A stretch of DNA of 64,000 bases. It comes from Acidiluteibacter ferrifornacis (lineage in GTDB: Bacteria; Bacteroidota; Bacteroidia; Flavobacteriales_E; Vicingaceae). The notes beneath the pieces were generated by a model. The model did no database searches, was not told the origin of the DNA, and saw only the letters and a list, made by a program, of their open reading frames with translations. Location: positions 186,001 to 250,000 of the forward strand of contig NZ_WWNE01000004.1 of the NCBI RefSeq assembly GCF_009909615.1, written 5' to 3'. A program made the position numbers and the translations under genes. Shown here piece after piece: positions 44,509 through 60,055 of the stretch (positions within the stretch are counted from its first letter, which is position 1; each line of letters starts with the position of its first letter).

Positions 44509-45522
44509 ATGGATAAGACAGGAGTATTGGTAGTTAATTTGGGAACTCCAGATAGCCCAAAAGTAAAAGATGTTCGACCATATTTAAGTGAGTTTTTGAA
44601 CGACCCACGGGTGATTGATATCCCATGGTTGGCTCGAAAAATTCTAGTGAACCTTATCATTGTTCCTTTCCGATCGTTTAGCTCCTCCAAAATTTATAAA
44701 GAACTGTGGACAGAAAAAGGGTCACCGTTGTTGTATTATGGAGAGGAAGTAAAAAACATGCTTCAGGAGAGGCTAGGAGATCAATTTGGAGTTCATTTAG
44801 CTATGCGCTACAAGAATCCGAGTATGGACGATGTGTTAGCTGAAATGCGAATGCAGAATTATACCAAGATAATCGTGTTCCCAATGTTTCCGCACTATGC
44901 TTCGGCCAGTACAGGGTCTGCAATAGAAAAGGCAATGAAAATTATGAGCAAATGGTGGGTGATACCCGAAGTTACTTTCATAAGCCAATATTGGGATCAT
45001 CCGGGGTTTATTAATGCTTGTGTAGAGCGAGCCAAGCAATACGATCTGAATGAATACGAACATTTCTTATTTTCTTATCACGGAGTGCCTGAAAGGCATG
45101 TCGATAAAGTATATTTAGATGGCTCTCCTTGTTCAGACCACAATTGTGAAAATGAACTGACAGACACGAATAAATATTGCTATAAAGCGACTTGTTTTGC
45201 AACTACACGATTAATTGCGGAGCGTTTAGGTATCCCTGAAGAGAAGTATACAGTAGCTTTCCAATCTCGTTTAGATAATAAGTGGCTAACGCCATTTTCT
45301 GATAAAGTAGTGGAAGAAAAGGCAAAGTCAGGTATGAAAAAGATGTTAGCCTTCAGCCCAGCTTTCGTCGCTGATTGCTTAGAAACTACGGTAGAAATAG
45401 GAATAGAATATCAAGAAATTTGGGAGGAGCATGGTGGCGAGAAACTACAGCTAGTAGAAAGCTTAAATGCTCACCCTGTATGGGTTGATGCCATAAAAGA
45501 TATGATTATAGAGCGAGTTTAA
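44509..45522 (+). CDS. hemH: Ferrochelatase
   Basis: Inserts ferrous iron into protoporphyrin IX, the last step of heme synthesis. 337 residues with the N-terminal GVLVVNLGTPDSPKVKDVRPYL segment (split), the metal-site histidine in LFSYHGVPERHV and the conserved FQSRLDNKWLTPF and FSPAFVADCLETTVEIG region (split) carrying the C-terminal glutamate. Alternative upstream starts were not seen. The last codons form part of the terminator. It follows lpd but no other heme gene is present. Confidence 0.95.
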   Translation: MDKTGVLVVNLGTPDSPKVKDVRPYLSEFLNDPRVIDIPWLARKILVNLIIVPFRSFSSSKIYKELWTEKGSPLLYYGEEVKNMLQERLGDQFGVHLAMRYKNPSMDDVLAEMRMQNYTKIIVFPMFPHYASASTGSAIEKAMKIMSKWWVIPEVTFISQYWDHPGFINACVERAKQYDLNEYEHFLFSYHGVPERHVDKVYLDGSPCSDHNCENELTDTNKYCYKATCFATTRLIAERLGIPEEKYTVAFQSRLDNKWLTPFSDKVVEEKAKSGMKKMLAFSPAFVADCLETTVEIGIEYQEIWEEHGGEKLQLVESLNAHPVWVDAIKDMIIERV

Positions 45523-45611: not shown

Positions 45612-45680
45612 AAATTACCTTATCTTTATGAAGTATTGCAAGATGGAACAGCTATTCACAAAGTAAAATTGATCATTCAA
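45612..45680 (+). repeat. 69-bp direct repeat, copy 1
   Basis: Matches 47582-47650 in the same orientation: the first 40 bp are identical, and 61 of 69 positions overall. The frame reads KLPYLYEVLQDGTAIHKVKL in both copies with small changes, is open from 45591 and ends at TGA 45684-45686, overlapping the next gene start. No start codon precedes it, so it looks like a remnant of a coding segment. Function unknown. Confidence 0.85.
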
Positions 45681-45682
45681 AA

Positions 45683-47185
45683 ATGAAAAAGGGATTAACC
45701 GTTATTTTTATATTATTTAATTTCCAATTTATTGGAACGAAGGCTGAGCTGTGTGCTCAGCCTTCTTTTGCAATGGACACCACTTTTCAACCATTTTTCA
45801 ATTTTAATCAAGGCCACGGAAAGGGGTATGTTTCAATGATATGGGAAAACCCCGTAACAGGGACGTTGCATGTAGCAGGCAGTTTTAGAAAGTTTTTAGG
45901 CAACGACCCCTTCTATTCTTTAATGAGTATGCACAGAGATGGAAGTCGAAATTTTGGCTTTCAGGGGTTTAATGTTCAGAATCATTCGTTCTTTTATCCG
46001 ATAAACGACAGTGTTTTTATATCAAGTTCGAGTGGGTTTTATTTTCCCATGGATATAGACGGAAATCCTGTGTGGCAAAATTGGTTGCAAATGTATCAAC
46101 AAACGGTGAGTTGCTCACGTGCTTACTGGCCCTACTTTTTTCCGAATGGCTCTTCTTTAATGACCAACAGTTGGAATGGAAACCCCAACCGATGTTTAAT
46201 TAGTAACCCTCCCAACACTTATCTTGGACAATCCATAGTAAAGGTAGATTCTTTAGGGTATTATGATTCCACTTTTCAGCACACCACTGATGGCACCGTT
46301 TCCGGGTTTTGGCCTTACGACAGTACCCGAATTTTGGTGTTTGGTTTGCCAAGACTTTTTACGCAGTACGATGGACATATCGTTAATGGATTGTGCCGCA
46401 TTTATTTGGATGGCACATTAGATACTACCTTCCACAGTCCTATTATTCCCGGTAACGGAGGGTTTCGGCCTAATTTGGTAGAGGAAGACGGCAAATTCTT
46501 CATTATCGGAAATTTTCAGGTGTATAATCACCCTAGTGAATGGTTTTCTATGCTGAAACTCAATGCCGATGGAAGCCTGGATACCACCTTTAATAATATG
46601 GGAAGACCAATAGATTCAGCCTCAAATGGATCACAAATAGGAAGTGTGGTCAAAACTCCTGACAATGGGTATTTAGTTGGAGGTGTTTTTAATCAAGTAC
46701 AAGGATATGTTAAGAATGCAATTGTGAAGTTGGATTCCAATGGCAACATAGAGCCGCAGTATTTTACCTCAAGAGGTCCTGACACCACCATCCTTTTTCA
46801 ATTTCAAGGAGGTATTTCTAATATTGTTGAATCAAAATTTGGAGGGTATTATGTAATGGGCGATTGGACCCATTGGGACGGAGTGCCTACCCAACCCATT
46901 ATTCGCATTCATGAAATGCAAACCGTTGGTTTGAAGAAGAACGAGCAAGAGTCAGTATTACTAAAAGTGTATCCTAATCCTGTGCAAGAGCAGTTGTATT
47001 TGGAGTTTTTGCCCAATGCACGCATTACTTCTATTTTATTTTACGATTTACAAGGTAAAGTGGTTCAATCGTTTCATCAAAAGGTGAATTCGATTTCTGT
47101 CAATGGCTTAAAAAACGGCATTTACTTTCTGAAAGTGATTTCAGAGCATGGGGTGAGTACGGAGAAAGTGGTGGTAGGGAAGTAA
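45683..47185 (+). CDS. Surface protein with delta-60-type repeats and type IX sorting domain
   Basis: Secreted protein of 500 residues, specific function unknown. Signal peptide (residues 1-26, cleavage likely after ELCA). The body carries delta-60-like beta-propeller units (LYLDGTLDTTFHSP; LNADGSLDTTFNN; LDSNGNIEPQYF, each after a strand such as GYLVGGVFNQ). The last 80 residues are a type A sorting domain (KVYPNPVQEQLYLEFLPN to STEKVVVGK), so it should be exported by the type IX system and cleaved by PorU. It lies between two copies of a 69-bp repeat, and its signal-peptide codons contain a terminator-like hairpin. Base composition is a little richer in GC than neighbours, by eye. Confidence 0.88.
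   Translation: MKKGLTVIFILFNFQFIGTKAELCAQPSFAMDTTFQPFFNFNQGHGKGYVSMIWENPVTGTLHVAGSFRKFLGNDPFYSLMSMHRDGSRNFGFQGFNVQNHSFFYPINDSVFISSSSGFYFPMDIDGNPVWQNWLQMYQQTVSCSRAYWPYFFPNGSSLMTNSWNGNPNRCLISNPPNTYLGQSIVKVDSLGYYDSTFQHTTDGTVSGFWPYDSTRILVFGLPRLFTQYDGHIVNGLCRIYLDGTLDTTFHSPIIPGNGGFRPNLVEEDGKFFIIGNFQVYNHPSEWFSMLKLNADGSLDTTFNNMGRPIDSASNGSQIGSVVKTPDNGYLVGGVFNQVQGYVKNAIVKLDSNGNIEPQYFTSRGPDTTILFQFQGGISNIVESKFGGYYVMGDWTHWDGVPTQPIIRIHEMQTVGLKKNEQESVLLKVYPNPVQEQLYLEFLPNARITSILFYDLQGKVVQSFHQKVNSISVNGLKNGIYFLKVISEHGVSTEKVVVGK
45739..45769 (+). terminator. Terminator-like hairpin inside the signal-peptide codons
   Basis: Perfect 11-bp stem GAAGGCTGAGC / GCTCAGCCTTC, 5-base loop TGTGT, then TTTT. It starts 56 bp into the gene at 45683 and would pause or end transcription there unless translation keeps it open. 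No other annotated role explains it. Confidence 0.55.
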
Positions 47186-47581
47186 TGTAAATTGTGGTTT
47201 TGTCCTACATTTCGACTCCGCTCAATGTGACAAAACTTTAATAAATTTTACTTCGGCAAATCTCAGTGTGAACTCTCTGCTCCATGTGACAAAAACGTCT
47301 ATGCGAAAACACATGTTCATTTTTTAATCATGGTTAATTGGTGTGATTGGCCTTGAGTGATTCTCGAGATTTTCGAAGTAGAGCCTTAGTAAATTCGTCT
47401 AGCTCCGAAGCCCTTTACTTCGGCAAGGCTCAGTATAAACTTAAAAAGCTCAGGACAAAAAACGAGTGACTTATTAAAATAAATTGGTCAAAGCCTTGAA
47501 TTTTTCGCCTGAGGCGAGACAGGTTGATTCATTTTGGACCCTGTCCGTCCCAGTTCACACGGCGGGAAACCAAAAGAACGA
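47186..47581. repeat. Non-coding region with degenerate intergenic repeats
   Basis: No credible gene. Two related 51-bp units start TTTACTTCGGCAA and end GACAAAAA(A)CG (47247-47297 and 47414-47464). A shorter relative (TTCGACTCCGCTCAATGTGA, 47211-47230, then CAAAAC) lies at 47206-47236. Small palindromes occur at 47405-47423 (CCGAAG / CTTCGG) and 47505-47517 (TCGCCT / AGGCGA). A GC-richer block (about 47535-47580) precedes copy 2 of the 69-bp repeat. An ORF running from here is not supported. Confidence 0.6.
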
Positions 47582-47650
47582 AAATTACCTTATCTTTATG
47601 AAGTATTGCAAGATGGAACAGTTATCCACCAAGGGAAACTAATCATGCAA
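47582..47650 (+). repeat. 69-bp direct repeat, copy 2
   Basis: Second copy of 45612-45680 (40 identical bp, then 21 of 29). It ends inside the last 12 bp of the minus-strand acyltransferase gene. The conserved frame reads KLPYLYEVLQDGTVIHQGKL; three of eight differences are silent, which suggests past coding. No start codon or protein family is recognisable. Confidence 0.85.
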
Positions 47651-48523
47651 TACCTCTCCTTCCGGACGAGTATGCTTCCATCGTTTGTGGCTCCACAACC
47701 AATAGGCTGGTTCTTTGATGATTTCCGCTTCTAGCAATCTAGTATGTGCTTTTGTAATCTCACCATATTCCATCATGCTGGCATCGTCACAAATGGTTTG
47801 ATAAGAAATTTTATAATGACCTCTTTTTAGTCGATAGATATGTCCGTATACCACCGCGCAATTGTGAGTTACTGCAAATTTTTCAGCCCCAAACTGTACC
47901 CCTGTTTCTTGATTTAAAAAGGTCATCCAATAAGCTCGTTGCGTTTTTCTAGGTGATTGGTCAGAGCCGAAAATTACCATTTTATTACCGTCGTTATCCT
48001 TGTTCATCAATACTTTAACTTCGTTGCTGGGCAACAAATTTAAGCCAAATCGAGATCGACTTGCTTTTACTTTTTTGTCGAAAAACTTATTCAAAAGAGG
48101 GGTGAAAAGGGCTATGGGTTTAATATTAATAGTGGGCCCAACGGCAATAGCAAACAATTCCCAATTCCCGTAATGACCTCCAATAAGAACAACATCTTTA
48201 CCTTGTTTGCCAAAATTGTTAATAATCTCAACATGTTCAGAACCCATTCTTTTTTGTGCTTCTTTGGAGGAAATGCTAAATCCTTTAATGCTTTCTAAAA
48301 TCAAATCGCAGAAGTGACGATAAAACTTAAACATAATGGCTTTTACTTCTTTAGGACTCTTTTCGGGAAATGATCTTTGAATATTTCCAAAAACTACTTT
48401 TTTGCGATAGCCTACAACAAAGTAAATGATAACGAACACCAAGTCCGATATTCGGTAGATTACCCAGAAAGGCAATAAGGAAATGGGCTTAATGATTAGA
48501 TAATATAAAAGTCTACTTAGCAT
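47639..48523 (-). CDS. Lysophospholipid/lipid A acyltransferase, LpxL-like
   Basis: Inner-membrane enzyme of the LpxL/HtrB family that adds secondary acyl chains to lipid A. I start at ATG 48523 (MLSRLLYYLIIKPISLLPFW); a GTG 57 bp upstream lies before the -7 box. The catalytic motif HxxxxxE is present as GGHYGNWELFA (about residue 120), with SDQSPR further on. 294 residues, one N-terminal membrane helix. The C-terminal WLWSHKRWKHTRPEGE motif matches the family. The last codons lie within copy 2 of the 69-bp repeat. Fits with kdsD, lptB and lptE. Confidence 0.9.
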   Translation of the reverse strand: MLSRLLYYLIIKPISLLPFWVIYRISDLVFVIIYFVVGYRKKVVFGNIQRSFPEKSPKEVKAIMFKFYRHFCDLILESIKGFSISSKEAQKRMGSEHVEIINNFGKQGKDVVLIGGHYGNWELFAIAVGPTINIKPIALFTPLLNKFFDKKVKASRSRFGLNLLPSNEVKVLMNKDNDGNKMVIFGSDQSPRKTQRAYWMTFLNQETGVQFGAEKFAVTHNCAVVYGHIYRLKRGHYKISYQTICDDASMMEYGEITKAHTRLLEAEIIKEPAYWLWSHKRWKHTRPEGEVLHD

Positions 48524-48550
48524 TGACCTGTTGTTAATTGATTCTCGCGA

Positions 48551-48558
48551 CAAAACTA
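48551..48558 (-). promoter_or_regulatory. -7 box of the acyltransferase gene
   Basis: Minus strand TAGTTTTG, exact TAnnTTTG, 27 bp before the ATG at 48523 and downstream of the alternative GTG start. No clear -33 TTG. Confidence 0.45.
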
Positions 48559-48651
48559 AACTAAAATGATTATTCGGCACTCATTCACTTTCAATTTTAT
48601 AAGCCATTAAGCCGTAGAATTGATTTATTTTAAACTATTTCATCTATTTTG

Positions 48652-59881: not shown

Positions 59882-59957
59882 AATAAAAAATTTATAAGTA
59901 ACCCTTGATAGAAATAGAACGCACACCATTATGGCCAATTAGGTATGTGTTTGTTTC

Positions 59958-60047
59958 AAATCCCTGCGCCCGCATTACCGGTATCAGGTTCAAAGGGTAT
60001 AATCTCAGCCCTAACTTATTTCCTTACGGAATTGGGCACCCCAATCG
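59958..60047 (-). promoter_or_regulatory. TPP riboswitch (THI element)
   Basis: Minus strand shows the conserved parts in order: GGGGTGCCC, a P3 stem-loop region, GGCTGAGA, ACCCTTTGAACCTGAT, CCGGTAATGCGGGCGCAGGG. These are the pyrimidine- and pyrophosphate-binding cores of the thiamine pyrophosphate aptamer, with closing stem ATTGGGG... to ...CAGGGAT. The only gene downstream is the TonB receptor at 57393. It has its own -7 box immediately upstream, so control is separate from the pnuC transcript. Confidence 0.94.
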
Positions 60048-60055
60048 AGACGCTG

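What the first reader, a model, noticed from the sequence alone, without database searches (positions are those of the whole stretch)
45612..47650. 69-bp direct repeat brackets a surface-protein gene
45612-45680 and 47582-47650 share 40 identical bp and 61 of 69 overall. The reading frame KLPYLYEVLQDGT is kept with several silent changes. The bracketed 1.9 kb carries one type IX cargo gene and odd intergenic repeats, while both flanks are core genes. It may be an inserted cassette or the trace of a duplication.
Basis: partly seen in the sequence, partly recalled or inferred. Interest (0 to 1): 0.6.

Follow-up and report, generated by a model that had tools for sequence, protein, structure and literature searches.

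The report
Copied surface-protein unit with gene-end scars
A gene for a secreted surface protein was copied into the gap between two housekeeping genes, and the short repeat on either side of it is the leftover end of a partner gene that this genome seems otherwise to have lost.

Summary
In detail: 45612-45680 and 47582-47650 match at 61 of 69 bases (E 2.4e-19). The repeat is not a transposon end. It is the last ~24 codons of a large type IX cargo gene (L) otherwise lost here; one L query finds only sorting-domain matches. L lies next upstream of the bracketed DUF5122 gene (D) in 11 of 20 related loci. The repeat's TGA overlaps D's ATG, as L and D overlap in 3 of those 11. The last ~10 bases of copy 2 are also the acyltransferase gene's native end. 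The segment is absent in 6 of 6 fetched relatives, both congeners included, so it was probably inserted in this lineage. It belongs to a unit 'L tail, D, structured repeat R' seen whole or decayed at four places in this genome. R, not in Rfam, is followed by a truncated sorting-domain end at 7 of 16 copies, including a second unit type on contig C19. Best reading: copies of a tandem-duplicated unit, inserted by illegitimate recombination. Whether R drives the copying is open.

The parts
44509..45522 (+). hemH (ferrochelatase), native left flank; native sequence runs on to about 45611 (inferred)
   Evidence: PF00762; same neighbour in the 6 relatives fetched
45612..45686 (+). tail 1: last ~24 codons of the lost partner gene L (KLPYLYEVLQDGTAIHKVKLIIQK*); its TGA overlaps the D start (ATGA, 45683-45686)
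   Evidence: 17-nt exact match to the longer L sorting-domain remnant in congener G001
45683..47185 (+). D: 500-aa DUF5122 protein with type IX (type A) sorting domain
   Evidence: PF17164, PF18962; TIGR04183; dN 0.24, dS 1.51 against the C16 paralogue, dS being near saturation
47348..47579 (+). R: copy of a dispersed structured repeat, centre replaced and second hairpin carrying an extra insert
   Evidence: ends of R by motif
47580..47641 (+). tail 2: a second copy of the end of L, directly abutting R
47630..47650 (.). 3' junction: end of tail 2 coincides with the native 3' end of the acyltransferase gene (stop codon 47639-47641)
   Evidence: congener acyltransferase ends without the insert
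47639..48580 (-). lipid A acyltransferase family gene, native right flank; start probably 48523 (294 aa) by comparison with congeners
   Evidence: PF03279

Best explanation
The segment is an inserted copy of a unit made of 'end of L, whole D, R', followed by the end of L that belongs to a next unit. An ancestor carried an L-D operon of two type IX cargo genes with R downstream. A tandem duplication, with one breakpoint inside L's sorting domain and the other at the 3' end of R, made the R|L-tail junction. Pieces of that array were copied to several places, one of them the gap between hemH and the acyltransferase gene, where the 3' joint formed at ~10 bases shared by the end of L and the end of the acyltransferase gene. 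The bodies of L were lost; D stayed intact. The L tail may have been kept because it holds D's translation start region. Shown: identity of the repeat, the gene pair in relatives, the empty site in the relatives fetched, the other copies, the R|tail junctions. Inferred: the order of events, the tandem duplication, microhomology joining, and the reason the tail was kept.
For: Third copy of the repeat at C16:602806-602877, directly before a D paralogue of 68% identity. In 11 of 20 D-bearing loci examined (L115-L134; 9 genomes, three of the loci from G001) a large type IX gene lies directly upstream of D, gap -14 to +144 nt; all 55 pairs of these 11 proteins match without their last 100 residues. 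G001 keeps, at the place orthologous to C16, a longer L sorting-domain remnant (PF18962 31.1 bits, cut-off 27) containing the start of the tail: 17-nt exact match to both window tails. C21 holds the other half of the same domain (77% over 87 bp, E 1.8e-16), a D 3' remnant, R and the first 16 bases of the tail. C18:291360 holds R|tail, a D end and spacer. In G042 the tail peptide matches the very end of a 535-aa gene (E 0.006). Interval 114 bp in G001, 320 bp in G002, 2116 bp here. C17 and C16 D genes are sisters, support 100/100.
Against: The 5' edge of the tail is the same in all copies, and R's 3' end is the breakpoint in two different unit types: more regular than random illegitimate joining predicts. 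The R core is 95-99% identical between C17 and C16 while D averages 70% at DNA level, so conversion between copies or separate movement of R must be added. The second hairpin of the window R carries an insert like that of R copies in G001 and G002 rather than of C16 and C21, so this R is itself mixed. The 5' joint (45611/45612) shows no clear microhomology. The tail alone reaches no Pfam family. The overlap of stop and start is found in only 3 of the 11 L-D pairs at 1-4 nt; in 7 there is a gap of 21-144 nt. The full L genes of G001 stand before D genes only 40-43% identical to the window's, so no full L of the exact type is in hand.
Confidence: 0.72

Rival explanations
1. Circular unit model: tail-D-R exists as an excised circle and enters by recombination at a resident solo tail, so the two window tails are the left and right joints.
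For: The window has a tail at both ends; R|tail, which would be the circle junction, occurs at C17, C21 and C18:291360; a solo tail without D exists in G001 at a place where G000 and G002 have none.
Against: Neither congener has a solo tail in the hemH-acyltransferase interval. The right tail ends in a match to the acyltransferase end, not in its own stop codon. No second open reading frame above 66 aa lies between the repeats, so no recombinase is carried.
Confidence: 0.12
2. R-driven movement: R is the constant 3' end of a one-ended (rolling-circle-like) or other non-autonomous element that carries the gene upstream of it, with a variable 5' end inside the preceding gene.
For: R is followed by 5'-truncated sorting-domain ends at 7 of 16 copies in two unit types, L tail/D and X tail/B; collapsed to two junctions among 11, chance about 7e-4; R is strongly structured with compensatory changes.
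Against: The window insert ends in tail 2, not in R. 9 of 16 R copies here have no tail, nor have the R copies shown for G001 and G002. No transposase was identified, but none was sought in the genome. No target duplication was seen by eye at C16.
Confidence: 0.1
3. Ancestral segment lost in relatives: the whole L-D operon sat here in the common ancestor and was deleted cleanly in the others.
For: The interval varies in length among relatives (114 and 320 bp in congeners), and other genes occupy it in G009 and G004.
Against: Absent in 6 of 6 relatives fetched (34 relatives had an acyltransferase match, the other 28 were not looked at), so several clean losses would be needed; and two tails are not explained.
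Confidence: 0.04
4. Assembly artefact at the repeats.
For: The genome is in 22 contigs and R occurs in 16 copies.
Against: The window R differs from the C16 and C21 copies by a hairpin insert (similar inserts exist in G001 and G002), and both flanks are in their orthologous order.
Confidence: 0.02

Closest known systems
Type IX secretion type A cargo (PF18962 / TIGR04183)
   Same: D, L and X carry this sorting domain; the repeat encodes the end of one
   Different: the repeat copies are remnants without a protein in front of them
Operon remnants and segmental gene duplication in bacteria (general knowledge, recalled)
   Same: paralogues at several places, each with pieces of the neighbour gene
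   Different: the edge at R is the same in two unit types
REP elements and RAYT (PMC3733652, abstract read)
   Same: palindromic and dispersed, some copies downstream of genes
   Different: R is ~170 nt with two hairpins, not 20-40 bp, and 0 of 8 aligned copies have GTAG or CGTC near the hairpin feet
BrickBuilt MITE of Porphyromonas gingivalis (PMC4596501, abstract read)
   Same: intergenic repeat of a bacterium of the same phylum, 19 copies in one strain
   Different: BrickBuilt is a 23-nt minisatellite with leader and tail; R is one long hairpin plus a short one
Domain rearrangement of P. gingivalis surface proteins (PMC5266723, abstract read)
   Same: surface-protein genes as places of recombination
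   Different: there, exchange of domains between strains; here, whole genes copied with the end of the neighbour gene

Membership tests
Type IX (type A) cargo gene, for D | C-terminal sorting domain over the curated cut-off | tested here: met
   PF18962 53.5 bits, cut-off 27; TIGR04183 49.1 bits, cut-off 23
Type IX (type A) cargo gene, for D | secretion and surface attachment | not testable with these tools
   needs an experiment
End of partner gene L (the repeat) | homology to the sorting-domain end of a gene that stands directly upstream of D | tested here: met
   remnant in G001 with PF18962 31.1 bits and 17-nt exact match; stop/start overlap as in 3 of 11 L-D pairs. The tail by itself reaches no Pfam family
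Insertion sequence or transposon | transposase gene inside | tested here: not met
   D is the only open reading frame above 66 aa between the repeats; Pfam finds no transposase in it
Insertion sequence or transposon | terminal inverted repeats at the segment ends | tested here: not met
   none of the 7 inverted pairs joins the two ends; the ends are direct repeats
Insertion sequence or transposon | target site duplication | tested here: inconclusive
   the native left flank aligns poorly with the congeners
REP element, for R | 20-40 bp palindrome | tested here: not met
   R is about 170 nt
REP element, for R | GTAG or CGTC tag at the hairpin foot | tested here: not met
   0 of 8 aligned copies
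Integron gene cassette | attC site recognised by an integrase | not tested
   no attC search was run; no integrase gene was sought in the genome
Known RNA family, for R | match to an Rfam model at gathering score | tested here: not met
   no match at R in the 6 sources searched

The most novel reading that the evidence does not exclude
R is the fixed 3' end of a new kind of non-autonomous mobile cassette in this genus (Vicingaceae, by its congener's record). It carries type IX cargo genes, each with the end of the preceding gene's sorting domain, so that operons of surface proteins are taken apart into single-gene units (L tail/D/R and X tail/B/R), dispersed and re-arrayed. The odds cover rival 2 and that part of rival 1 in which a circle opens at R's end.
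Probability: 0.13. Interest if true: 0.75.

Novelty: new variant of a known kind. Interest (0 to 1): 0.45.

Why it matters
This genome has 114 matches to the type A sorting domain, fragments included. How such cargo sets grow and shuffle is little documented as far as I know (recalled). Here the scars at each copy (end of the neighbour gene, structured repeat) let the steps be read. If R proves to be the moving part, it would be a new route for spreading surface-protein genes. If not, this is still a clear case of operon break-up by segmental copying.

Tried and rejected
Phage origin: a degenerate tail pattern had 0 matches in viral contigs; D itself was not searched there. Leader peptide starting at the internal ATG: that frame is stopped after four codons in the G001 tail. 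Known RNA: no Rfam match at R. REP/RAYT: tags absent in 8 of 8. Mostly silent change between copies 1 and 2: not supported. In one search the C16 and G001 tails were taken one base out of frame, so its codon counts for them are void; one search repeats them in frame. The chance figures for R beside truncated sorting domains are rough: copies share descent, and the collapsing to 11 was my judgement. Of the 7 cases, two X tails were scored by a profile (for C19:239649, for C19:161139); the others were read by eye or by DNA match. Paper searches listed no title about R or R-bounded type IX genes; that covers only the held library, those terms and the rows shown. Names such as PhoD-like and cation antiporter are recalled from the look of the proteins and come from no call.

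Full report
What was checked. The match is not chance (E 2.4e-19; 0.02 expected for a 20-base core). In the genome (3,516,632 bases, 22 contigs, 99.93% complete) the 69-nt query finds three places: the two window copies and C16:602813-602874, which the peptide extends to 602806-602877.

What the repeat is. At C16 and at window copy 1 the repeat ends in a TGA that overlaps the ATG of a DUF5122 gene with a type IX sorting domain; the two genes are 68% identical. The genome-contig scan returned 30 loci; I examined the 20 closest, L115-L134, and not the last ten. In 11 of 20 a large type IX gene is next upstream of D: gaps -1, -1, -4, -14 and seven from +21 to +144 nt. All 55 pairs of these 11 proteins match each other without their last 100 residues. 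The 11 come from 9 genomes, three loci being from G001. Of the other 9, two have D at a contig end, two have a smaller sorting-domain gene or fragment upstream, and five have another neighbour. The repeat therefore sits where the last codons of the large gene (L) should be.

Direct support comes from G001. At the place orthologous to C16 it keeps 65 codons of an L sorting domain (PF18962 31.1 bits, cut-off 27) that run through NQLENGAYLYEV, with a 17-nt exact match to both window tails. At C21 of this genome the first half of the same domain (77% over 87 bp, E 1.8e-16) is fused to the end of D. Among 60 genomes searched with the tail peptide, 3 had a match at E 0.01 or better: this one, G001 (solo tail) and G042, where it is the very end of a 535-aa gene. 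One L protein as query finds in this genome only two weak sorting-domain matches (best E 5e-5). L appears to be lost here.

The insert. In G001 the hemH and acyltransferase stop codons are 114 bp apart, in G002 320 bp, here 2116 bp. Four further family members fetched have the pair with no D between: touching in G007, about 350 bp in G022, unrelated genes in G009 and G004. So 6 of 6 fetched lack it; 34 relatives had an acyltransferase match and the other 28 were not looked at. The 3' junction falls on bases shared by the end of L and the native acyltransferase end: longest matches 9 and 11 nt with window tail 1, 11 and 12 nt with the G001 tail.

The unit. Behind D lies R, then the second tail. 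The same order recurs: C16 tail-D-R; C21 remnant of L and D, then R and the first 16 bases of the tail; C18:291360 R, tail, end of D, spacer. G001 has a solo tail at a place where G000 and G002 have none. D of C17 and C16 are sisters (100/100) and look constrained (dN 0.24, dS 1.51, the latter near saturation). The R core is 95-99% identical between them and the sorting domain 81%, against 68% for the rest of D. This gradient suggests conversion between copies, or later arrival of R. The second hairpin of the window R has an insert of the kind seen in G001 and G002 copies, not in C16 or C21.

R itself. R is about 170 nt: one long hairpin and a short second one. One copy folds at z -5.04. Over 8 aligned copies 15 of 51 pairs have changes on both sides, 0 of 500 shuffles reach this, and sliding the pairing destroys it; the structure was derived from these same copies. 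A hand-made consensus found 17 matches in this genome, which I count as 16 copies because two lie in one C16 copy; 8 are near full length. It found 2 in G001, 5 in G002, 1 each in G007 and G009, and none in 9 of the 14 family genomes searched. Rfam has no match at R in six sources.

R and truncated sorting domains. I looked downstream of all 16 copies. At 7 a truncated sorting-domain end follows within ~40 bp on the same strand: C17, C21 (16 bases only) and C18:291360 with the L tail; C19:161139, 239649, 237380 (a fragment) and 99379 with the tail of another gene, X. At 9 it does not: C16 unit, C14:240320, C14:87825, C18:87167, C16:211882, C11:2732, C11:548, C19:515392, C20:321972. R copies shown for G001 and G002 have no tail either. 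The X tail is 49% identical over 67 residues to the end of gene 3 of a G001 L-D-X-B operon, and the genes behind it on C19 are homologues of gene 4, which in G001 is read as two frames. On C19 the order R, X tail, B, R, X-tail fragment repeats the layout of the window with other genes. Counted singly, 7 of 16 is far above chance (1e-13); collapsed to two junctions among 11 it is 7e-4. The pattern is real but rests on two events.

Reading. The simplest account needs no new machinery: tandem duplication of tail-gene-R makes R|tail; pieces are copied elsewhere by illegitimate recombination; L is lost. What it does not explain is why R's 3' end was the breakpoint in both operons. That keeps the bolder reading open, that R is the end of a moving unit. 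Against it: the window insert ends in a tail, not in R, and no recombinase was identified (none was sought outside the segment).

Verdict. The wider pattern merits a strain survey.

Noticed in passing
window 47348-47579; L187 1821-1990; L189 1668-1837; L042 5936-6103: R, a dispersed ~170-nt structured repeat with compensatory base changes, no Rfam match; 16 copies in this genome, several just behind type IX cargo genes.
   Followed up: partly
L186 1881-4209 (-), L185 648-2807 (-), L184 1772-5022 (-): A second unit type on contig C19: R, truncated sorting domain of gene X, then gene B (a type B sorting domain in the copy scanned, L186), with R behind B in two of the three places.
   Followed up: partly
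L072 4402-11977: Five closely similar DUF5122 type IX genes in tandem, 4 nt apart, behind one large L gene in congener G001; the N-terminal parts look mosaic between copies (by eye).
   Followed up: no
window 47411-47495 and L004 11583-11667: The C17 and C16 R copies share the same replaced centre (CTTTACTTCGGCAAGGCTCAG...), a mark of common descent; C21 has the usual centre.
   Followed up: partly
window 59944-60053 (-): TPP riboswitch by Rfam (64 bits).
   Followed up: no
L111 4777-5891, L113 4245-6493: The hemH-acyltransferase interval holds other genes in two other genera (by recall, from no call: a toxin-antitoxin-like pair; a GH3-like and a protease-like gene), so it seems to tolerate insertions.
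   Followed up: no
L041 4743-4824 (-): Solo L tail in G001 without D or R; no tail at this place in G000 and G002.
   Followed up: partly
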